From Gerris lacustris (Eukaryota > Arthropoda > Insecta > Hemiptera > Gerridae): DNA of 64,000 nucleotides. The number at the start of each line of letters is the position of its first letter. Within the stretch, counting starts at the first letter, position 1. The DNA lies in the NCBI GenBank assembly GCA_951217055.1, contig OX578279.1, positions 26,004,173 through 26,068,172 of the forward strand. Reading direction: 5' to 3'. Made by a program: the position numbers and the translations under genes. This document shows, piece after piece, positions 1 through 59,411 of this stretch. The notes under the pieces are model-generated. The model saw nothing but the letters and a program-made list of their open reading frames with translations. It was not told where the DNA came from and searched no databases.

Positions 1-60
1 TCGCCGTATCACTCTAAGCAATTTGTTCAAAGTAACTTCAAATCGCTTTATATTGAGTAT

Positions 61-329
61 ATGGGAATATTGATAACGATTAGTCCTTTAGAAGATTCGA
101 GGTGGGTGGACAACCTGGGTCCAGAGATAGGATTTACCCGGCTCACTTCAACCGTACCTTTCAAAAAGGAGCTGGCGCACTTCCCCCATGACCCAGCCTA
201 TCCCGGCGCACTTGGTGTACAGCGCACCTCTCAACTACAGGTCTTTGTAGATAGATCTCTTCAGTGCAATATGGATGTGTGATAACCAGTAACAAGCATA
301 ACAATAATTAACACTTATTGGACAGGCCC
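61..329. other. leading stretch, no gene recognised
   Basis: A 73-codon plus-strand frame (61-282) lies here in sequence of higher GC than its surroundings. I recognise no domain in it and it has no visible upstream context because the window starts at 1. It lies just upstream of a LINE remnant on the same strand and may be an unrelated or very decayed part of it. I do not call it a gene. Confidence 0.3.
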
Positions 330-595
330 CAATTGATCGACTCGACAGATCCCAAGAAAGAACATGGAGATGGCTGGGACACACCTTAAGGAACCCAGAT
401 AGAGCAACAGAGAAGGCTTTAAAGTGGAACCCATAGGATGTCAGGAGGAGGGGCGGCTGGCCGAAAGGGACGTAGCGAATGACAGTGCAAAATGAGGTTA
501 GACAAGTTGGGTAATTCTGAGGTGGACTCAGGAACCTGGAGATAGATCGAGATGAGTGCGGCGGATTCTCCTGGGAATCCGCCTAGGAATGGCAT
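330..595 (+). pseudogene. non-LTR retrotransposon C-terminal remnant
   Basis: Read in plus frames, this encodes the familiar end of many LINE reverse transcriptase proteins: an R-W-R-W-L-G-H-T-L-R-N-P block at about 359-395, then A-L-K-W-N-P, a stop codon where Q is usual, and R-R-R-G-G-W-P-K resembling the G-R-P-K signature, then Q-N-E-V-R-Q-V-G and a D-R-D-E-C block resembling the usual D-R-D-E-W. At least one in-frame stop and a frameshift show it is dead. An A-rich stretch follows at 610-640. The motif order is typical of RTE/CR1-like elements; the exact clade cannot be told from so short a piece. The reverse transcriptase and endonuclease domains are absent (5' truncation or decay). Confidence 0.7.
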
Positions 596-599
596 AGGA

Positions 600-3500
600 G
601 AATCACAATTTTTTATATTTATATAAAAAAAAAAACCATATGTGTGGACATTTTTTCATTAAAATGTTAAACAGTTAAAGAAGAACACGAACTAACAGAG
701 TCCTGCTCATTATCAAAATTAAAACCTTGACCGGATTTTTATAGTAAGAATACATTTAAGTTCTACTGAATTCAAGAAGCAAACTACGAAGAAATATTCT
801 TTCATCAGGCTTCCATTTACCTTGAATTGCTACGTTACTTCAATGGATAGAAAATTGATCGTAAACGAACCTCACCGTCATAATTATTGTAAAACATTTT
901 TAAACACATATTATTATTAATTTAATGTTCAAAACAAAAAAGGACTCGCCGAACAATATGATTCACATTTATATATATTAACTCGGAGAGGAAAATAATA
1001 CCGATATTTGCTGAAAGGAATGGTTGGCGGCACAATTATACAGAATCTTAAACCAATAAATCTGATCGTTTTCAAGGAGTACAAAGGCACCGCAGGTCCA
1101 TTTAACTTTTCTTTATAATAGCAACTCTTCCTGTTTGTCTGTGTGCGGCCTCGAACCACCTTCACCGAGCAATTGTCAACAAATTGTTTTAATTACATTT
1201 TATTAAAAGTGACTCTCGGAGAAATGACAATTATTATTTGTTAAAAATGAACAGGAGAAAAAGAAAAAGATTGAGTTTTGAAAAGCAACTAGAAAGAATT
1301 TAAAAATAATCTAGGCTTTCCGGTTGAGATGAAGACAGTTTTTCGAGAGATGAAACGTTACATTAATCTTAGCATTCTCAGGTATGTTGAGCATTGAACA
1401 ACATGGAGCAACTCCAGCCAACATCAAAGATAACTTGAATAACATTTTTGATAACACTTTGAATAGTAATGACGAGAGGTTAATTTTATCTGAACGATAT
1501 CTTAATACGCAACATTTAAAGGTAGCTTATCATTACGAAGAAGTGCTAATAAACACGTACCAAGTACCAATAGTTATTTATATTTTATATTACTTCTTGT
1601 GGTATTGCTTTTTTCTTATTTGTTTCTTTAATAGAAGAATAATAATTTTAAAACATACTTTAAAAAAAAAAAAAAAAAAAAATCCCCTATACTAGCTATC
1701 ATATTGTTTATATCAAATAAAGCAATACTACAACTTTTAATGCGTTCAAAGAGACCAATAAATCGACCCCATGTTTATTAGAATTAGATAAATTTGACTT
1801 TTCGACATTTTTACGCGAACAATAAACTTATAATGATACTTTATAAAAATTATAAAGAATACATTTTTCTTGAATTGTCGAAATTTGGTCCGGTTATCTC
1901 ATTACGATTTAAAAAAATTGTACCTTTTGGGTACGGTACAGAGTAAATTTTGAACAAAAAGTAATACTATAAAATCTTCTTCATTTAAGAACCAGCAGGA
2001 GATTTTAGGAAGAGTTATTTTTTCTTCAAAAAATGAATTTTCTTTGGCATTACACGTATTGACAACTCGATCCGGGGACACCCAGTATAAGCAAACTCAA
2101 AGACATAGTAAATAACTAGTTGTTGAACAAGCACCTTTAGTAACCATATACGATTTGTCGTATATAAATGAAAAAGTATGATTAGTAACTTATAGACTTA
2201 ACAAAACTGAAAGATCTAGTCTGAACCAGACCCAAAATAGTATAAGAGTGGTCTCGTACACTATAGATTGTCCCCACGAAGAAGTGATATTTTAATATCG
2301 TGAATCTCGGTAATGAATCGACATTTTGCTTTCAGACGTAGTATTTTCAAGAATGCGTACAGTCAAGGACGTTCAAGAAGGGAGTAAGGAAATTACTCAC
2401 CAGTATTTATCTACTGTGAAAATTATACAAGTTCAAGGCCCAAAGATAATTATCGGTATCAATTAAAGCATTTTAGGGGATTAATGAAGCTATACTAACC
2501 ATGCCTTAAGTCAATTATTCATCTGGCTATGCCACTTCGGCTAATCTTAAGTTAATGCTACGGTTGAGAATTAACTAGTATTAAGTAATACTATAATACT
2601 TAATTTTTGTTACACTTTGTCAAACACTACATTTGTATGATTTATGCATCAAAGAAATAATATAAGAGTGATTTGTAGATAGGAGAATTAATATCCCTTT
2701 GTCAAAAAATACGTAGCATTAAGTGAAGATTTACCACCACTTCAATCAATGCAGGAATATATATGTAAATATCCAAAAGGACACATTCTAGCTGAAAATT
2801 TTTAAAAAAATTATGAAAATAAACTTTGTTCACAAAAAGTATTAATGAAAAGCCCCTAAAGAGTAGATTAAGAATAGGTATAAACGTATATATTGATTTT
2901 AAATATTTTATATGGACAGTGAAATGTTGATATTAGTTAAACTAAATTAAAAGTTGATTTAAAAATAGTTATTTGTCTTAATAGTGTTGAGTTATCAGTA
3001 ATTATCATAAAGTAGAGGACTTTTTGAATGAAGGTGTATAATATCATTCTATACTTAAGATTAGCAGGATCTTTAAACCTTTTTACTGCAATTAATTATA
3101 TTGTATACTGAAGTCTTGTCCAGGTTTTAAAATGGAAACTTTTTTTTAAATTAAAAGAGAAATAATAAAGATATATTTTAAGGTATTTAATTGTATGACT
3201 TGTCATGTATGATATATAACAATACATATTTGTTGGCATTTGGAAATATTAAAGCCAACAACTTCTAGCATGAGCCCAGAACGATTCGCATGGTGAAGGC
3301 TATATGTAATTTAAATATTATGAAAATTATAATATTTTTAATTCATTAAAAATTCATTGTTAAATTTTTGTTAGTTAAAATCTATTAGAATTAAATAAAC
3401 AAAAAATTCTCTTATTATAATTATTTATAGAAATAACTTTATACTAAATTTTTTTACAAATAATATAAACCGGATTTTTCTCATTCATTAGAATAATTTA

Positions 3501-5565
3501 ATTAGTATAAAAAAAGAGAAATATTTACTTAATAAAAAAAAAGAATTAATTTATTTTTTGTCTGAATTCATAATAAAAGACTTGAGTCATAATCCTCTGA
3601 GGAACCACCCCAACCCCTTCTTCTTATACTTCCTTAAAAAGTTATTTAATCTTTTAATTTATTCTTTATCATTTAATAAAGAATGAAAAAAATATATATT
3701 TAAAAAAAAGGAAAATAATATCGAGTTATTTTTATTTAATTATTAAAACAATAGGGCAAGGCTGTGTAGACTACTCCCCCTCTCAATGGACCCCCCCCCC
3801 CCCCCAGGGTTTCAGAGTAAAAGGAAACTTGATTAAGAAAAGATGGGTCGAGTGTGATTCTACGATAAAACAATATAATGGTTTTTTAGTCTCAAGTAAA
3901 AATTAACATTTATTAAATTAAAATTAATATCTATTGTTTAGTAAGGGGTGGAAGATAAGGGTTAAGACGCTTTAAGGATAGCAGCAATATTCTTCTTAAA
4001 AAAAAAAAAAACAAAAAAAAAAAACGAAATAATATAAGAAAAAAAATTAAATATTCAAGAAATAAAGTTTTCTTCAAACGATAAGTTTAAAATCTATTTA
4101 TTCATATTATTTATTTATTTTAATTTGAAAATTAACATTTTTATTCTTATTTATTTTTTCTGATATAAATATTATAATTTTAGCATAACATTATTATATT
4201 AATAAAATATAATATACTTGATTGATTTAGTTTCTTTTTAAAAAATATATATTTTATCTTAAATTAATTTAAGATAAAATATAAAAAAATTAAGATAAAT
4301 ATCAGAGCAAATAAATAAACAAATAACTCTATAGCACCCTCTTCACCTAAATTCTTAAATATAATTGAGTAGTGTCCCGTGTGTGACGAACGCACACCTC
4401 GAAATGATTTGTTATTGCTAAGCAAAGGAAACCATATTTATTCTTGAGCTTTGATTCTAATTATTAGATATCTAAATTAATTTACTTAATTTTACTTTTT
4501 TTCTAAATATAAAATTAAGCCCGTTGCCACAGGCCTAAGGGCTCGTAATATATAAGTTGTAGTAGCCCCGCAGCAGCCGTTACCCAGTGAATTCACTGCT
4601 TGGACAGCCCTTTGTGGAGGTCAGGGTGTAGGGCACTACATTACATTTGAATTAAATTACAATATTTATTTAATATAGAACAAATACATAATTTAGTAAC
4701 ATAAAACTTTATTATGTTGTAGCTGTAATATAGGAAGGCGATTTTAATATTAATTAAGTAAAAATTAATAGTGACCATACCAAATAATTAGTAGGAATAT
4801 AAACTATTATAAAAATAACTCTTTATGACAAGATAGGCTTTTTCAATTTTAAGTGTAAATAAATGTATGTTAAAATGCATGCTATTTAGTCAGTTTTTAA
4901 ATATTGTTATACATAATTTAAATTTAAATTTTATAAATGTTTAGTATATGTAAAGAAATTTTGGAATAAAATCGTATATTATGTCGAGCTTGATTGATAT
5001 TTTAGGCTAGAATATGACCAGGACATGGTCGAAATATAGCCATTGTTAATAACTTAGATATTTTCAAATATTTGTAACCCTTATCACGACCAACAAAAGC
5101 AGAAGACTACTTGATAAAGAGGGACAAATTCTAGCAAACTACAAATACATTATCGTTTAAAATTGATAAATAAGAAAGTACGTTAACCTTAAAGCTCAAA
5201 AACAATATAGCTCATAACTCTAAAGTTCAAAAAGAATATTCGGTTTTACGGCGAGTAAAATAATAACAATCAACTTAATAATTTGCAATGTCGAAGATTT
5301 CAGAAATATAAATAAAACAACTACATATTAAATCATAAAAAAGTTAGAAGTAAACGTGAAATAAAAATTCGTTTGGCAGTTGTAGAGGGGAGAGGGTTTA
5401 GTGGGAGGTATCTCCTTCCTTTTCCTAACTGCTACATCATAACTCAAGAACTCCGTTCTTCCCTATAACGGGAAGGAGGGAGTTCTCTATCTCCTTCTAC
5501 TGCTATAGTTTAGTAAATGCGTCTCTTTCTTTCTTATTGAACTTGTTTACTTTCTTATATTCGAA
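600..5565. other. AT-rich stretch without recognisable gene
   Basis: Almost entirely AT-rich unique-looking sequence with homopolymers: a poly(A) run near 1663-1682, a poly(C) run near 3791-3805 and A-runs near 3998-4024. A 103-codon plus frame at 1384-1695 ends in the poly(A) run and shows no domain; it looks like a chance frame. A small GC-richer island at about 4510-4645 is unassigned. The segment 5380-5480 holds two related polypurine/polypyrimidine blocks around an inverted 'gaactccgttctt...gggagttc' type repeat. No splice-site-bounded exon could be supported. Confidence 0.4.
941..962. repeat. short match to the 45.3/46.4 kb direct repeat end
   Basis: About 20 bases here (ggactcgccgaacaatatga) closely resemble the right ends of the direct repeats ending at about 45332 and 46372. 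It may be an isolated end of the same repeat family. The match is short and could be chance. Confidence 0.25.
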
Positions 5566-5567
5566 GT

Positions 5568-6280
5568 ATATATAAAGAGAAAGTATTGTAATGGTGAAAA
5601 TTCGATTTTGAGATTTTGATGGACTAACACGTTTTGAGAACCCCTGAGTCCAAAAAAGTATTATTGAAGAAATGTTTGTCTGCTGTCTGTAGTCTGGTAA
5701 TCTTGGTAGACGCGCGGAGCCTTAACCACTGGCCGACTTTGATGAAATTTGGGAATTGTACCTTGGTGAATATTTAGAGGATGTTAGAGGTGGATAATGT
5801 TGGATGGTTAGGTTTTTGGATTAGAGCGGGAAAAATGGAGAGGGTGTGGGTGTGTTGCATATTGCGTGTGCATTTGTGTGTGCTGCATTTTGATTTCGAG
5901 TTTCAGCTAAATCTCGTAAACTAGATATTCTTGGAAAGACGACTTATTATCATATAATCTATTAGTACTATCATGTACTAATAGATTATTTTTACGAGTA
6001 TTGAGTTTTGGAGGTAGGACTCCCAAATTTATAGTTAATTTTCGCCTCGGGGTATGATTTTTCTGAACTTGGATGTACTCGGGGTATTTTTTTCTGAACA
6101 TGGATGACAAAGTTCATTGAAATCGGCCCAGTAGTTTAGGCTCCACGCGTCTGCACTCTACACAGGCTACAGACAAAAAAAATATTTTTTTTTGGCTCTG
6201 GGGACCTTAAAACGCGTAAAATCTCCCTATCAGATATTCGCTCCATTGCAATGTTTTCTCTCTCTATATATATATATACT
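5568..6280. mobile_element. foldback copy of a dispersed repeat
   Basis: The left arm (about 5568-5780) reads agagaaagtattgtaatgg, then a block ending ctgagtccaaaaaag, then a run of gtctg units. The right arm (about 6015-6280) carries the same sequence in reverse complement: ttgcaatgttttctctctc, the accttaaaacgcg block and the ggcccagtagtttaggctcc block. The arms therefore face each other, as in a foldback element. A perfect 15-bp hairpin (5954-5968/5975-5989) lies between them. Single copies of the same family occur at 24082-24530 (plus) and 37925-38140 (minus). Open frames of 63-67 codons on the minus strand are repeat sequence, not genes. Confidence 0.6.
5954..5989. repeat. perfect 15-bp hairpin
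   Basis: Arms ataatctattagtac and gtactaatagattat are perfect reverse complements around a 6-base loop. It sits between the two facing arms of the surrounding foldback repeat and may mark its centre. Confidence 0.7.
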
Positions 6281-6289
6281 AGGTACCTA

Positions 6290-7864
6290 CACGAAAAATT
6301 GAAAAAATAAATGTTTAAAATGCACACCTGTTTTAGATTCTATAAAGGAATATTATATAAATTTGATTTATTTTTTGTTTCATCCTTATCTAGATTTAAG
6401 AATATAATTTTTAAGTATTGACTAAATTATTATCTTGCCTGAGGGATTAATAGTGTACAATATATAAAAGTGTTTAAATTTATGTATTTAAAAGATTTTT
6501 GTTGACGTTAAATGTCGACCTGGGGCCAGAAACCTTTTAATTTCCATCCTATTTCTAACTTATGTATTAAAAAAATCGGTGTTGAAGATAAGTTCTGTGG
6601 AGACTGAGGCAGCAGGTGGCCACGGCTGGTCTAATAAAAGAAAGAACGGAGCAGAGAACTACAAGGCTTTGTAGCGTTAAGAACTAAAAAAATGTAAGTT
6701 TTAAAGAGAACCTACCGACAAGGAAGGGATAGCTTCTAGCAGATAAAGATTCTCCCTAGATACTTAATCGAGAACGAAGTTAGAGCCAACTATGCTATCT
6801 TTAAACCAATTGAGGTAGTTCGTTTAGATCCAAATTATGTACCAACCTCAAACAAATTTCAAGAAAAGGGTTAGATGCAGTGAAGGAAAAGTATGGATAT
6901 ATTTCAGATCATATTAGAAAAACAAGTAAAGCGCGCTTCACGTAAGTACGTGAGGCGATAATCACCGGTTTCTGTACGATTAAGTTAAAAATATTTAGTG
7001 TAAAATTTTAATAGTTAAATATTCTTGTTCTACACTTCAAGACCTTTAAATTAATGTATAACATGTCATGGTGACTAAAAACATTTTTTAGTCCATCTTG
7101 AAAATAATATTTTCAATATCCACAAATGCCGAGATGCATGTTCAATGTACATTTCCTGTGTGACGAATTTCATGTTCCTAGGTATTGTAGTTTATGAATT
7201 GAAACATGCTAACGGATAGACAGAGACAGACAGACAAACAGAGCTCACAGAAACCTAAAATGACTAGGTCAGATGGCTCTTCTTCCCAGCTAAGTCTACT
7301 AGACCATCAAGACATGCGAAGAGTCACGCCCCTCTCTCCTCTTTTTTAAGAAAAAGGACTAATATTAAATGTTTAATAATGATAAGAGTATCTTTCCCAC
7401 CCGTTGACAGCGTTGTACCGTCTTCTTAGACGCCTTATCAATTTCACAAACTCAGTTTCTGGTTCGATCTAAAGATTGCTTCAACTATTTCGTTTACAAG
7501 ACCGAAAATAAAAATGAGTGATAGAGAAGAGCGTTAAAATATGTATATGCAAATTAAGATAGGGTGTTCTTTCTAAAAAGACCCCGAGCATAATTTAGTG
7601 CTCGGGATATCACAAAAAAAAACCACCTTAACACAATTAAAATACCATAAAACAAAAAAAAATTAATTAAGTAATAGGACCTCGTTAAAAGCGATTTTGA
7701 TGTTGGTGATGATTGATTAGTTTTGGCGCTAGAAGGAGCAAAAAGAAGGAGATTACAGCACAGGTTTTAAAGAAACTATTGACAAATCATTACGTTTTTT
7801 GCTCGTTATATTTTCAGTTTCCTAGTACTTAAAACATGAAAAACAATCGGCGTAGTATAAAAGT
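6290..7864. other. stretch without recognisable gene
   Basis: AT-rich sequence with a short gacagacagacaaacagag run near 7217-7241, which resembles tails of other repeats in this window, and one compact hairpin (see 7583-7606). No coding signal seen. Confidence 0.4.
7583..7606. repeat. 8-bp GC-rich hairpin
   Basis: cccgagca and tgctcggg are perfect reverse complements separated by eight bases and are followed at a short distance by an A-run. It looks like a small stem-loop in AT-rich DNA. No function can be assigned. Confidence 0.5.
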
Positions 7865-8098
7865 CATCAGTTTGACTTAAAACTATAATATAAATAATAA
7901 TTATAACACACAGAGTAATCAGTGTTATAACAACATAGTAATCATTCAAATATTCGAGATAAATTCAATGAGATTGAATATTATTGAGATTCTCATTGAA
8001 TGTATCTCGAATATTTGGATGATTACTCTGTTGTCATAACACTGATTACTCTATGTGTTATAATTATTGTTACTATTGTAGTTTTAAACAAACTGATG
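7865..8098. mobile_element. MITE-like long hairpin, 108-bp arms
   Basis: The left arm (7865-7972) and the right arm (7992-8098) are reverse complements over about 107 positions with only around ten differences, separated by a 19-base centre. Outer ends read catcagtttgac and aactgatg. This is the structure of a foldback MITE or a locus giving a long hairpin RNA. A clear target-site duplication was not found. A minus-strand frame of 71 codons (8023-8238) starts inside the right arm and is an artefact. Confidence 0.75.
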
Positions 8099-8099
8099 A

Positions 8100-10603
8100 G
8101 TACCATCACGGTGGCAGCCGTTATATTACTTCGTTGAACTTCTATTACGCATGTTTTGTAATGGTCAATGGTGTCCATAACGAGCAGAAAATTAAATACC
8201 TGCGTTATTAGGGTAGTTACTAAATCTAAGAAATTCATTATTAATTATTAACCTTATATTAATAAGTAAACCTTATATTATTAAGTAAGATACTATTTTA
8301 AGGGAATTATAAAGCAAATTTCACTAAGTATGTTATCAACGATAAAGAATTGCTATTAAGTGAGCGGACTTCATAATGTAAATCACCAGTCAAACCTAAG
8401 ATAATAGTAGGTATATCTCACACTTTCCTCTACAATCTATTATTGTCAAATTTATTTCAATTTAACCCTGTTTTTTAAATCTATCAAAATTGTTTTGATT
8501 TTGACCTACCATCCAATTTTCATTAAAATAGGACGAGTAGTTTTTAAGTTATGTTGATTCACAAAAATTGAAATTTCCGTTACCTTCGGTAAAATCGGAA
8601 CCAAAAATCTATATTTATTTTAATTATATAATTCCAAATTTTATGAAATAACTTTTAATAAAAGAGAGGAGTCCCCATACTAATAAAAGTACACCATTTT
8701 AATGAGGAGACTTCCAGAAACTACTAAGAAAAAAAAATGAAATAAAGGCGTCACGATTCAATTTTGTATTTTTAAGGAGAGATCCAGATTTGATAATCAA
8801 AATAATTTTTTACGGAAAGCGTCTACATTCTATTAAAATAACACCTTTTTAACGAGGAAGCGTCCAGAATCTATTAATAATAACAAGCCCTAATTATATA
8901 AAATTTTCAACTGGGGTGTTAAAATTCTTTATAAAAAATGTAATATCATCTGAATTAGACATAAGTAAAAGCTGCTCGAATAACTAAGTATAAGCACTAC
9001 GACTTAATAATATCGTCCATAAATAATGTTTAACTTCACATTCAGAAAGAGGAAATACAGGTCAAAATGTTGTTTAGTATTTCGTTAAAGACAAAAATAT
9101 AATATTTTGTAAACAACACATATGATGTAGAAGAATTATATTTTCGAATCAAATTCAAAAATCTATTAATGCAACACGCAGCTGTGACAAGAAATACTTT
9201 TTGTAAACTGCATAAAATATCGAAAAGAACAAGTATATGAGTTGTTTGTATGTGTACTTATTTCATCATATTTTAAAAACGAAAACAAGGCATGTGGAGA
9301 ATAAAAGGGGGATATTGTATTTATAGCATTATTTTAATTGTACAACAATCATGCTCTATCATTTGTCTTTCTGTTTTTTAATCTAGATAAAATACAACCG
9401 TTTACGCGTTTCACCACCCTCTACTGCCAAACTATAAAGCATTTAGTTGCCAACATTTAAAAAAAAAAAAAAAGCGACAAAAACCTCCCAAAGCGAGAAA
9501 GAGTAGAATTTATGTACCTCCCTTCTTTAACTTGTTACAAAACTAGGAATATTAGGATGAAAAAAAATGAAAATGATACAAGCTTATGATCTATAGAGGC
9601 CGCGAATGCCAAGTAACGTATTGCGGTGTTATAAATATAATGCCACGTTATAATTTTCATTCATATTTACACTTAGTTACCACCCTAAAATACCATTACT
9701 GTGTGATATAATTTTTTTTTTTTTTTACACATATTTGTAAACAATATTAATGGGTTATAATAGATATCCTCTGTTTTAAAAAGGTCCATTAAGACTAATT
9801 TCAAAAGCGAAATTATAGCAATAAATTCAAGACAATATTAACTGTTTGTTTTGGTCGGAAAATGGCCCTTTTATAAAACTAATGTTATTGATTTCAATGA
9901 AAACAAATTAAACAATCTAATAGAGCAATATATTTGACTAACTAAATAAGCCAATATTAGGGCAATTACTACGCAGCTGATATATATATATATATATATA
10001 AAATTGAAAAAAAACCACTGACTCGTCAGGATGATATCTAAAACCACTAGATCTATGACCATGAGCTTTTGTACATAGGCTCCACATATCATTTAGGAGA
10101 AATCTGTTTTTGATAACTTTAGTTCAAGATTGGCATACATTTATATGGAAAATACGATATGACATCTCCGGAACTATCATCAGAAAACATTACACTGAAA
10201 CAACTTTTTAAAAAGATTATTTTAAAGCCATTTTGAATCAAAATGGTGATACGTATTTAAAACTAAGTCCCCTAACTAACATAAACATCCACTTGTTTAA
10301 AAAACGTGGATAAAGAAAGAAGATATACCTCTGCTTTTTTCAGAAACTTAATTTTATCCAGTAAGGTAGTATAAAATTACTAATTAGGAAACTACAGATT
10401 ATAATTGATCCCCAAGGTTAGAGCATTAAGAATATTGTTTCTTAGTAAAATAATGTTTCTTGGAGGTAAGTTATTAACACATTAAATAAACGAAACACTA
10501 AAAATAACACTATTTAGTGAAGCACGGGAATCCAGCTCGTATTATTATATAAAGATATGTTGAAAAAGAGAGCGTATGTACCTATAGTTAAATAAAGTTA
10601 AGC

Positions 10604-14348: not shown

Positions 14349-14942
14349 TTAGATCTCGTCGTAGGCTTGTTTCTTGTCGGCTATTTCGAAGATTCTGTTT
14401 AGGTTGTGGTAGTCTTCCTCATCATCAACAATTAGGCGGGATAAATATTGGCTCCTAAAGTGGTCGTAGGTTTGGCATCTTAAAATTATATGGGCCCAGT
14501 TTTCATTTTGTTCCGAATGACATAAACTGCAGGTCTGCTCCTGGTCGAATTTGTAGAGGTTGTTATTGTGAAATATTCTTGCAGTAGATTCGCTAGAATT
14601 CCTTACCTGGGCGACAACCCTGACTACTTTGATAGCGATGGATAAACGCAAGTAGCTCTTTTCTTGAAGGTCCCATTTCCTATCTCTGAAGAGTTGATTG
14701 AATGTAGTTTTTTTGGCGCGGTCCATGTCATCCGAGAACAATTTATCTTCGAAATTTTTTAGGAAAGCTGGAATTAGGTTCTTTAATCGGTGTGGCGTTA
14801 ACAAATCCCTAGTATTATACACTGTGCTGGTTCGACCTAACATTTGAACTAACTGTGAGAACCAGTTGTACTTCGGCATGTTACCCTGTGAATCGTGCAG
14901 GTGTACTAATCGGTTCAAATAATAATTCGAAATAGCCGACAA
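14349..14942 (-). pseudogene. inverted LINE ORF2 C-terminal segment
   Basis: A 197-codon frame encodes the C-terminal region of a non-LTR retrotransposon polyprotein. Near residues 137-155 it carries a CxLC...H-x4-LRC pattern (C-S-L-C-H, N-W-A-H-I-I-L-R-C-Q-T-Y), the zinc-knuckle-like C-x2-C-x(n)-H-x4-C found downstream of the reverse transcriptase in several LINE clades. The first residues (M-S-A-I-S) are an artefact of the inversion junction. True coding starts around N-Y-Y-L-N-R-L. The last residues (D-E-I) are the target-site duplication; the natural continuation D-V-Y-N-F-V-T-N-A-L is on the plus strand at 14953-15013. The reverse transcriptase catalytic domain is missing. The frame is otherwise uninterrupted, so the insertion looks fairly young. 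A CR1/L2-type assignment is likely from the tandem tail but not proven. Confidence 0.8.
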
Positions 14943-15510
14943 GAAACAAGCCTACGATGTATACAACTTTGTAACTAACGCCTTGCAAATTAGATCTTTT
15001 ATATTAAATGAATAATAATAATAAATAAAAAATAGATAAGAAAATACCAAAAATGAAAAAAAAAAAGAATAATAATAATAATAAAATAAAAAAAAAATAA
15101 AAATAAAAATAAATAAATAAAAAAAAAATAAATAAAATAAAAATAAAAAATGAAGAAGGTAGAAATTGAGTTTAATTTATTATAAAGTTTTATTTTATTA
15201 CGGATTGATATTTTAATTTACTAAAAGAATAAGGAAATGTTTACATTTAATTATATATTACTTATAAATTAGCTATGTAAATATAAGTACGAGAAAATAT
15301 TTTATTACATTCATTATTATTTTACATATCTTAAATCAGTAGAGAAGAATTTATTTATTGTATTCGAATCTTTTTATAGTTCTATGTTTATTTAAATATG
15401 CTTATAATATTGTAATATGTATACAAACGTAAAATTATTGTAATGGAACTCCTTGTTACAAGAAGTGTATCTTCTGAAAACAATAAACATCTTATCTTAT
15501 CTTATCTTAT
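14926..15510 (+). mobile_element. sense 3' end of the same LINE
   Basis: Opens with F-E-I-A-D-K-K-Q-A-Y-D-V-Y-N-F in frame, continues to a stop near 15013, then about 490 bases of A/T-rich 3' UTR rich in aataaataaa units. It closes with ggaactccttgttacaagaa, caataaacat and four CTTAT-type units. Short tandem tails in place of poly(A) are typical of CR1-group elements. Confidence 0.8.
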
Positions 15511-25920: not shown

Positions 25921-26078
25921 ACTTGAACCACGGCAATTGAAATACCAAAAACAAATTCCAAAAACAAATTGAAAGCTTAATTCGGGACTAGGTATCGTTA
26001 CTTGAACCACGGCAATTGAAATACCAAAAACAAATTCCAAAAACAAATTGAAAGCTTAATTCGGGACTAGGTATCGTT
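25921..26078 (+). repeat. perfect 79-bp tandem duplication
   Basis: The 79-base unit at 25921-25999 is repeated without a visible difference at 26000-26078. The unit starts acttgaaccacggcaattga and ends gggactaggtatcgtt. Identity implies a recent event or an assembly duplication. Confidence 0.9.
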
Positions 26079-26097
26079 ACTGACAGAGGAAATTATT

Positions 26098-44719: not shown

Positions 44720-45068
44720 TTGAAAGAAAAGTCTCCCCACGTAAAAATATATTTAATAATTTTCCAAGCAGTTTTCAGCCACTATAGGGCCATCATCAGT
44801 GCCGAAAAGTGAAAAATGTTAATTAAAACGTTGAAATGATGGGATAGTAGTGACATGCCAAACCAGCAACTCAGAATAAGGCAGAATTGCTTTTAACCGG
44901 TGGAGTCTCATACCGGTTGCTGGTTTGGCATGACTCACTACACTTCCATCTTTTCAACGGGTTAATTAACATTTTTCACTTTTTGGCACTGATGATGGCC
45001 CTATAGTGGCTGAAAACCGCTTTGAAATTTATTAAATACATTTTTACGGGGAAAGACTTTCCTTTCAA
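44720..45068. mobile_element. foldback element, about 150-bp arms
   Basis: The left arm (44720-44868) and right arm (about 44917-45068) are reverse complements with modest divergence. Conserved blocks are cagccactatagggccatca, aaaagtgaaaaatgttaatt and catgccaaaccagcaac. The 45-base centre carries a further small hairpin (aaccggtgg...ccggtt). Each arm has a tgatgatggccctatagtgg stem-loop followed by ctgaaaacc. Non-coding and non-autonomous; probable MITE or foldback transposon. Confidence 0.8.
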
Positions 45069-56025: not shown

Positions 56026-58775
<2,750 letters not shown>

Positions 58776-58789
58776 ATTTGTGTAGTAGT

Positions 58790-58819
58790 CCTATGTGCCA
58801 CGCAAGCGTGACACATAGG
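58790..58819. repeat. 14-bp-arm hairpin within the unit
   Basis: cctatgtgccacgc and gcgtgacacatagg pair around a two-base loop with a single mismatch. The second unit keeps the inner part (59101-59122). It would be a stable arm of the unit RNA. Confidence 0.7.
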
Positions 58820-58880
58820 AACTGTTCCAACATTAGACTATACGTCACAAAGATGTTGGCTCGGCATTACGCCATGTCCT

Positions 58881-58923
58881 GCATCGTTTCGTCGCGTCCG
58901 ACTCATCAGGGGCCCGACGATGC
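58881..58923 (-). ncRNA. hammerhead ribozyme, copy 1
   Basis: Read on the minus strand from 58923 down: stem III 5' strand gcatcg (58923-58918), U16.1 and C17 (58917-58916), cleavage site between 58916 and 58915, helix I gggccc (58915-58910), ctgatga (58909-58903), stem II gtcg (58902-58899), loop gacg, stem II cgac (58894-58891), gaaa (58890-58887), stem III 3' strand cgatgc (58886-58881). All invariant core residues (C3 U4 G5 A6, G8 A9, G12 A13 A14, A15.1-U16.1, H17 as C) are present; stem II is 4 bp and stem III 6 bp plus A-U, with no mismatch. The order (open end at stem III) is type III. Helix I is only the palindrome gggccc with practically no loop, which is unusual. Activity is predicted, not shown. 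Confidence 0.8.
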
Positions 58924-59187
58924 CCACCCAACTCTGGACCTATACCAACTCAAGAAGATCAGGTATAGGCTTTATCAGAGACGAGCGTGCTCTCACACCG
59001 CCATTCTTGCTTGGCTGGCAAAACAAATCAGCAATGTAATACCGTGTTTTTGCACACTGCAATAAGGTACACAATTTGTGTAGTGAGAGACACCAAGGGA
59101 TGTGCCACGCAAGCGTGACACATAGGAACTGTTCCAACATTAGACTATACATCACAAAGATGTTGGCTCGGCATTACGCCATGTCCT

Positions 59188-59230
59188 GCATCGTTTCGTC
59201 GCGTCCGACTCATCAGGGGCCCGACGATGC
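59188..59230 (-). ncRNA. hammerhead ribozyme, copy 2
   Basis: Identical over all 43 positions to the copy at 58881-58923, 307 bases away. Predicted cleavage lies between 59223 and 59222. Together the two sites would release an RNA from 59222 to 58916 of 307 nt with a complete unit in it. Preservation of both cores next to other differences between the units fits selection on, or recent origin of, the ribozyme. Confidence 0.8.
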
Positions 59231-59411
59231 CCACCCAACTCTGGACCTATACCAACTCAAGAAGATCAGGTATAGGCTTTATCAGAGACGAGCGTGCTCT
59301 CACACCGCCATTCTTGCTTGGCGGTGTGAGAGCACGCTCGTCTCTGATAAAGCCTATACCTGATCTTCTTGAGTTGGTATAGGTCCAGAGTTGGGTGGGC
59401 ATCGTCGGGCC
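59218..59411. repeat. perfect 92-bp inverted repeat, 10-base loop
   Basis: 59218-59309 and 59320-59411 are exact reverse complements around attcttgctt. The outer edge of the right arm is gtcgggcc, five bases beyond the position equivalent to the hammerhead cleavage site (59406/59407). A 5' inversion during insertion or an assembly fold-back could give this structure. Confidence 0.9.

What the first reader, a model, noticed from the sequence alone, without database searches (positions are those of the whole stretch)
58881..59230. Two identical hammerhead ribozymes 307 nt apart in a tandem repeat: retrozyme-like element
Seen: on the minus strand, 58923-58881 and 59230-59188 each contain GUC, GGGCCC, CUGAUGA, a GUCG/CGAC stem II with a GACG loop, GAAA and a perfect 6-bp stem III, identical in both copies, within direct repeats of about 300 bp. 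Known: natural hammerheads need exactly these core residues. Small tandem repeats with hammerheads (retrozymes) give circular RNAs and are spread by other retroelements' enzymes; plant ones are type III and metazoan ones mostly type I. Inferred: a transcript through both units would self-cleave to a 307-nt RNA that could be ligated into a circle. A type III animal retrozyme with almost no helix I would be unusual.
Basis: partly seen in the sequence, partly recalled or inferred. Interest (0 to 1): 0.92.

Follow-up and report, generated by a model that had tools for sequence, protein, structure and literature searches.

The report
Paired hammerhead ribozymes in mobile element
This is a small, non-coding jumping element carrying RNA-cutting hammerhead motifs that seem built to work only in pairs, and the way it sits in the genome looks like the work of Penelope-type retroelements.

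Summary
Two identical 43-nt hammerhead motifs lie on the minus strand, 307 nt apart. Rfam's type III model matches each at 42.6 bits (E 6.2e-6 for the window), under its gathering score of 48.5. Helix I is GGGCCC, too short to close as a proper hairpin. But it is self-complementary: the predicted best fold of two motifs, in trans or in the 350-nt A-to-B RNA, is exactly a double hammerhead sharing helix I. With longer flanks that fold loses its lead, and the foldback arm would block hammerhead A. The double hammerheads whose joining helix I could read fuse through helix III.

One independent copy from the same genome, with 22 changes in 252 sites outside the ribozyme and 0 in 43 inside, has the same features. 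Published Penelope-like insertions look like this. Best reading: a non-autonomous, Penelope-type retrozyme with a re-permuted hammerhead that works as a dimer. Cleavage, circular RNA and the helper enzyme are untested.

The parts
59188..59230 (-). Hammerhead A; predicted cut between 59223 and 59222 (GUC|GGG)
58881..58923 (-). Hammerhead B, identical to A; predicted cut between 58916 and 58915
59217..59222 (-). Helix I palindrome GGGCCC of A, proposed to pair with that of B
   Evidence: two-strand and 350-nt folds
58910..58915 (-). Helix I palindrome GGGCCC of B
59100..59322 (-). Unit A, part shared with unit B (223 nt)
58793..59015 (-). Unit B, part shared with unit A (223 nt, one difference seen)
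59016..59099 (-). Rest of the 307-nt unit between the shared parts; holds the internal tail
59069..59084 (-). Internal copy of the tail (ACACAAATTGTGT hairpin)
   Evidence: direct repeat D3
58771..58786 (-). 3' tail of the insertion, proposed start site of reverse transcription
   Evidence: same tail at the 3' end of L007
59319..59411 (+). Inverted arm, 93 nt, perfect reverse complement of 59218-59310, 8 nt apart; ends 5 nt past the cut site of its own sequence
58653..58769 (.). (AT)n tract, presumed target; present on this side only, the other flank is AT-rich but not (AT)n

Best explanation
A non-autonomous retroelement that works like a metazoan retrozyme but was inserted in the manner of a Penelope-like element (PLE). 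Shown in sequence: non-coding ~300-nt units in tandem, each with one hammerhead, a fixed 3' tail hairpin next to (AT)n, and a variable 5' end bearing a head-to-head inverted copy of part of the unit. [quoted passage not shown] These are ligated into circles by a host ligase, or the uncut multimer is used. A PLE reverse transcriptase, supplied in trans, starts inside the RNA at the tail hairpin on a nicked (TA)n target, copies more than one unit, and ends by self-priming or a template jump, which makes the inverted arm.
For: Motif and spacing. Pairing: two-strand MFE -39.1 against 2 x -13.7 for single motifs, with the double hammerhead as the pairing found; the 350-nt A-to-B RNA has the double hammerhead as its MFE (-130.9, against -118.4 with A formed alone). 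Mobility: independent copy L007:6947-7326, ribozyme identical, 22 of 252 other aligned sites changed. Both of 2 insertions have the same tail next to (AT)n, an inverted arm (93 and 66 nt, each 100% to its own unit, with different end points) and more than one unit length. (AT) tracts of 20 nt or more: 17 in 281 kb, some of them at L007 itself. PLE literature: inverted pLTR head to head at the 5' end, explained by self-priming, and AT-rich targets (PMC3846280); reverse transcription starting inside the RNA in an AC-rich stem loop 111-118 nt into an ORF that begins at hammerhead stem II (PMC11167929). Here the tail spans 123-136 (window) or 128-140 nt (L007) after the matching ATG.
Against: No PLE reverse transcriptase was found, and the genome-wide search did not complete, so the helper is inferred. 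PLE hammerheads in the papers read are minimal type I; this is the other topology. The double form is the MFE only for the short A-to-B RNA: it is 1.0 kcal/mol above the MFE with 30-nt flanks, 4.1 above for two units without the arm (there no better than A alone, -204.1 against -204.2), and 23.4 above for the whole insertion, where the arm pairs with A. In a control with the 20 orders of GGGCCC, the natural one ranked second in energy gained on pairing, a third is within 0.4, and eleven others gain 9.6; their dimer folds were not inspected. L007 has one hammerhead, so it could act only in trans, and its single form lies 5.5 above the MFE. No insertion end falls on the cut site. Ribozyme conservation is only modestly significant (p 0.027). 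Only two independent insertions are known. In the anole PLE, cleavage was not needed for insertion in vitro.
Confidence: 0.6

Rival explanations
1. The two insertions are ORF-less or truncated copies (tandem pseudo-LTRs) of an ordinary autonomous PLE in this genome, not a separate non-autonomous family. The hammerhead is that PLE's own variant and the 307-nt unit has no life cycle of its own.
For: Same architecture as PLE pseudo-LTRs; hammerhead-ATG-tail order and distance similar to the anole PLE; 5' truncation and tandem ends are usual for PLEs (PMC8969392 passages).
Against: Both insertions are joined unit to unit (or unit to tail repeat) without any ORF remnant between, and neither is a mere 5' truncation of a longer element as far as seen.
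Confidence: 0.22
2. A retrozyme copied from circular RNA and inserted by a LINE-type enzyme; the inverted arm comes from twin priming and the (AT)n site from chance or target preference.
For: More than one unit length in 2 of 2 insertions fits a circular template; LINE-like proteins exist in the genome.
Against: No poly(A) and no target-site duplication recognised by eye (in L007 the repeats hide any); the arm is made of the same sequence as the direct unit, as in PLEs.
Confidence: 0.1
3. A dispersed repeat that carries a dead or neutral hammerhead; the motif is kept only because the copies are young.
For: Conservation p is only 0.027 and a 72-nt identical run goes beyond the motif; the single motif folds otherwise.
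Against: All core residues and both stems intact in the copies seen; palindrome intact.
Confidence: 0.08

Closest known systems
Metazoan non-LTR retrozymes (PMC7229834: abstract, parts 1 and 3 of the text and passages; PMC7761336: abstract, sections headed 6 and 7, figure legends)
   Same: Tandem non-coding units of about 150-450 bp with one hammerhead each and GC below 50% (48.9% here); axolotl ones cut much better as dimers, and one family has a one-pair helix capped by a palindromic tetraloop
   Different: Theirs are type I and the weak palindromic helix is III; here the topology is type III and the weak palindromic helix is I. I saw no mention of inverted arms in the parts read.
Penelope-like elements (PMC11167929: abstract and main text; PMC3846280: discussion and passages; PMC8969392: passages; the 2014 paper on PLE hammerheads is not held)
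   Same: Tandem pseudo-LTRs, head-to-head inverted pseudo-LTR at the 5' end, AT-rich target, start of reverse transcription in a stem loop downstream of hammerhead and ATG
   Different: No reverse transcriptase/endonuclease ORF in the insertions; PLE hammerheads are described as minimal type I, in the anole cutting 26 nt after the start codon, while this one would cut 9 nt before the matching ATG
Double hammerheads of avocado sunblotch viroid, newt satellite, satRPV and others (passages of PMC6466107, PMC6155905, PMC3088659, PMC2837043)
   Same: Two weak hammerheads fuse through a self-complementary helix into an active pair
   Different: Where the helix is named in the passages it is stem III; here it would be stem I. 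For the cave-cricket double hammerhead (PMC2837043) the passages did not name the helix.
Plant LTR retrozymes (PMC4918200: abstract, one section, passages)
   Same: Type III hammerhead in repeated ends
   Different: 600-1000 bp between the ribozymes and LTRs with 4-bp duplications there; 307-nt spacing here
Type III hammerheads of delta-like agents and flies (PMC7936874: passages)
   Same: Type III topology in animals
   Different: Those have a longer than usual helix I; here it is three G and three C without a loop

Membership tests
Hammerhead ribozyme, type III | Core CUGANGA, GAAA, A15.1-U16.1, H17, with stems II and III and helix III open | tested here: met
Hammerhead ribozyme, type III | Reaches the RF00008 gathering score (48.5) | tested here: not met
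   42.6 bits. The alignment shows the loop of helix I missing
Hammerhead ribozyme, type III | Closed helix I with a loop that can touch loop 2 | tested here: not met
   GGGCCC leaves no such loop in the single motif
Hammerhead ribozyme, type III | Self-cleavage | not testable with these tools
   needs in vitro transcription
Metazoan non-LTR retrozyme | Tandem non-coding units of about 150-450 bp, GC below 50% | tested here: met
   307 nt and 48.9% GC; in L007 one unit with tail repeats 301 nt apart
Metazoan non-LTR retrozyme | Type I hammerhead | tested here: not met
   type III topology
Metazoan non-LTR retrozyme | Circular RNA in tissues | not testable with these tools
   no RNA data at hand
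Penelope-like element | ORF with telomerase-like reverse transcriptase, usually with GIY-YIG endonuclease | tested here: not met
   the insertions are too short and hold no such ORF
Penelope-like element | Tandem pseudo-LTRs with a head-to-head inverted pseudo-LTR | tested here: met
   inverted arm in 2 of 2 insertions; full tandem only in the window, one unit plus a 16-nt tail repeat in L007
Penelope-like element | AT-rich target | tested here: met
   (AT)n at the 3' end in 2 of 2, on both sides in L007
Penelope-like element | Reverse transcription starts in an AC-rich stem loop inside the RNA | tested here: inconclusive
   fixed tail ACACAA(A/G)TTGTGT ends both insertions; its role is inferred
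Penelope-like element | Minimal type I hammerhead in the pseudo-LTR | tested here: not met
   type III topology
Penelope-like element | Autonomous partner with the same pseudo-LTR in the genome | not tested
   The genome search gave no answer in 19 tries; the 296.5 kb sample holds no further copy but is far too small to tell
Plant LTR retrozyme | 600-1000 bp between two ribozyme-bearing LTRs | tested here: not met
   307-nt spacing
Plant LTR retrozyme | 4-bp target duplication, tRNA primer site, polypurine tract | not tested
   ends looked at by eye only

The most novel reading that the evidence does not exclude
A family of animal retrozymes, moved by Penelope-like machinery, whose hammerhead has switched topology: helix III is long, helix I is a bare palindrome, and the ribozyme can cut only as a pair fused through helix I. 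Tandem arrangement is then a requirement for cutting, so that only RNAs holding two units are processed. The insertion scars would be direct sequence evidence for the proposed but unproven link between retrozymes and PLEs.
Probability: 0.42. Interest if true: 0.75.

Novelty: new variant of a known kind. Interest (0 to 1): 0.6.

Why it matters
PMC7761336 (section read) calls PLEs only 'likely candidates' for moving animal retrozymes. Here a retrozyme-like unit carries PLE-like insertion scars in 2 of 2 independent insertions, which makes the link testable by one genome search. A double hammerhead fused through helix I, if real, would show that either closed helix can carry the dimer switch, and it would tie RNA cutting to having two units in one RNA.

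Tried and rejected
Chance motif: rejected on the expected count and the independent copy with an identical motif. Plant LTR retrozyme: rejected on size. Pre-miRNA: Rfam lists MIR156, mir-26, mir-4891 and others on the foldback, all below gathering; taken as effects of a perfect hairpin. Pol III boxes: the loose patterns in the script gave none. Rod-like circle: the 307-nt circle folds better than 99 of 100 shuffles (-101.5; shuffled mean -87.4), but its paired fraction, 0.645, equals the shuffled mean, 0.644, so unusual self-pairing is not shown. Exact patterns in viral contigs and bacterial and archaeal genomes: 0 matches, as expected for a eukaryotic element, and those collections would not show eukaryotic relatives. 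The second L007 copy in L030 lies in a 6,571-bp tandem duplication and is not counted as an insertion. Host naming failed: Pfam gave retroelement-type or weak matches only.

Not answered or not held: the genome search 19 times; paper searches; paper look-ups failed. Two of these papers then opened under another id; the other three are not held, among them the 2014 paper on PLE hammerheads. Statements on what is not in print rest on the six answered searches, and on the passages read.

Full report
What is there. On the minus strand, 59230-59188 and 58923-58881 are the same 43 bases. They hold the core residues of a hammerhead, a 4-bp stem II with loop GACG, and a 7-bp stem III counting the A15.1-U16.1 pair. 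Rfam's type III model scores each 42.6 bits, E 7.8e-8 for 801 bases and 6.2e-6 for the window. This is below the curated cut-off of 48.5, and the default scan lists nothing. The alignment shows the loop of helix I missing. About 3e-4 such motifs are expected by chance in a window of this composition.

Anatomy. Read 5' to 3' on the minus strand, the insertion is: a 93-nt inverted arm (59411-59319), 8 nt, unit A, its tail, unit B, its tail, then (AT)n. The units share 223 nt; one search shows one difference. The arm is a perfect reverse complement of 59218-59310 and runs to 5 nt past the cut site of its own sequence. The 307-nt unit has 48.9% GC in a 30.7% GC window. The flank beyond the arm is AT-rich but not (AT)n.

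A second insertion. I read 31 stretches of the same genome, 296.5 kb in all, and compared all of them with the element. One independent copy turned up, L007:6947-7326; other matches had E of 1.8 or more. L030 and L022 were picked because they lie near L007, and the L030 copy belongs to a 6,571-bp tandem duplication, so the fair count is 1 in 281 kb. By simple arithmetic this scales to about 1,900 in the 535 Mb of the five contigs seen, with a Poisson range of roughly 50 to 10,600. L007 has (AT)n on both sides, one unit with the 16-nt tail at both ends (301 nt apart), and a 66-nt inverted arm, 100% complementary to its own unit, with 73 nt between the arms; up to four of the 66 may be target TA. 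Against the window it has 22 substitutions in 252 aligned sites outside the ribozyme and none in 43 inside (Fisher p 0.027), plus 9 gap columns. The arms match their own units and end in different places, so I take each to have arisen at its own insertion.

How the ribozyme could work. Helix I is GGGCCC. As a hairpin it allows one pair over a four-base loop, and adding that pair costs energy (-11.4 to -9.2). The single motif prefers another fold (-13.7). But GGGCCC is self-complementary. Two motifs together fold, without constraint, into a double hammerhead: a shared 6-bp helix I, two stems II, and two stems III that exchange strands (-39.1). The 350-nt RNA from A to B has this as its best fold, 12.5 kcal/mol better than the best fold with A formed alone. 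With 30 more bases on each side it lies 1.0 above the best fold. With two units and no arm it lies 4.1 above, level with A alone (-204.1 and -204.2). With the inverted arm it lies 23.4 above, because the arm pairs with A's cleavage strand. In a control with all 20 orders of three G and three C, the natural order ranks second for energy gained on pairing, a third order is within 0.4 and eleven gain 9.6 against 11.7; I did not inspect the folds of those dimers. So the energy argument supports the idea and does not decide it. Cleavage itself is untested.

How it could move. The PLE papers read here describe tandem copies with pseudo-LTRs, often with an inverted pseudo-LTR head to head at the 5' end, explained by self-priming, and simple AT-rich targets (PMC3846280; PMC8969392 passages). 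In the anole element, reverse transcription starts inside the RNA at an AC-rich stem loop 111-118 nt into an ORF that begins at the hammerhead's stem II (PMC11167929). Here the tail ACACAA(A/G)TTGTGT lies 123-140 nt after the ATG of CTGATGAG and abuts (AT)n in 2 of 2 insertions. The frame from that ATG stops after 22 codons in the window and stays open into the (AT)n in L007, so I claim no protein. By inference, a PLE reverse transcriptase in trans nicks (TA)n, starts at the tail, copies a multimeric or circular RNA for more than one unit, and ends by snapping back. No insertion end falls on the cut site, so the insertions do not show that cleavage took place; in the anole element cleavage was not needed for insertion in vitro.

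Against what is known. Animal retrozymes are described with type I hammerheads; an axolotl family has a helix III of one pair with a palindromic tetraloop and cuts far better in dimeric constructs (PMC7229834). PLE hammerheads are described as minimal type I that may act as dimers (PMC7761336). Double hammerheads are described as fused through stem III (PMC6466107; PMC3088659 legend; PMC6155905); for the cave cricket one the passages did not name the helix (PMC2837043). Type III hammerheads in animals are known from delta-like agents and flies, with a long helix I (PMC7936874). I found no helix I double hammerhead in searches, but the 2014 paper on PLE hammerheads is not held. I do not file this as a metazoan retrozyme (type I not met) or as an autonomous PLE (no ORF). 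It works like the first and was inserted like the second.

Host. Unnamed. Contigs of 161.8, 117.7, 93.9, 85.5 and 76.4 Mb make it a eukaryote with a long-contig assembly. Nine open frames picked from the sample gave LINE-like, gypsy-like and other or no matches. An arthropod would fit, from general knowledge; it is not shown.

Noticed in passing
59218-59411: A transcript through the foldback would be a 93-bp perfect hairpin, a likely Dicer substrate and so a possible source of small RNAs against the family; Rfam's sub-threshold miRNA matches sit here.
   Followed up: partly
44720-44853 and 44935-45068: A 134-nt inverted repeat (89%, 81 nt between the arms) whose arms each carry CTGATGATGGCCCTATAGTGGCTGAAAAC, reminiscent of a decayed minimal hammerhead in a head-to-head pair.
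   Followed up: partly
L002 + strand near 1725; L007 and L030 minus strand: CTGAAGA, a 6-pair stem after a bulged T, then GAAACGTC: candidate minimal type I hammerheads of the PLE kind in the same genome.
   Followed up: partly
L007:766 to about L030:3900: A 6,571-bp tandem duplication, identical in the compared stretches, with its breaks in (AT)n, carrying the element; a recent duplication or an assembly artefact.
   Followed up: partly
14349-14951 (-): Possible LINE C-terminal remnant with a weak zf-RVT match (E 0.0058, below cut-off).
   Followed up: partly
25921-26081: Tandem duplication of a 79-bp unit, 100% matches.
   Followed up: no
58784-58821 against 59082-59128: Next to the tail, unit B can close a TCCTATGTG/CACATAGGA stem, while unit A and L007 have CCCTTGGTGTCTCTCA there: a local replacement beside the proposed start of reverse transcription.
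   Followed up: no
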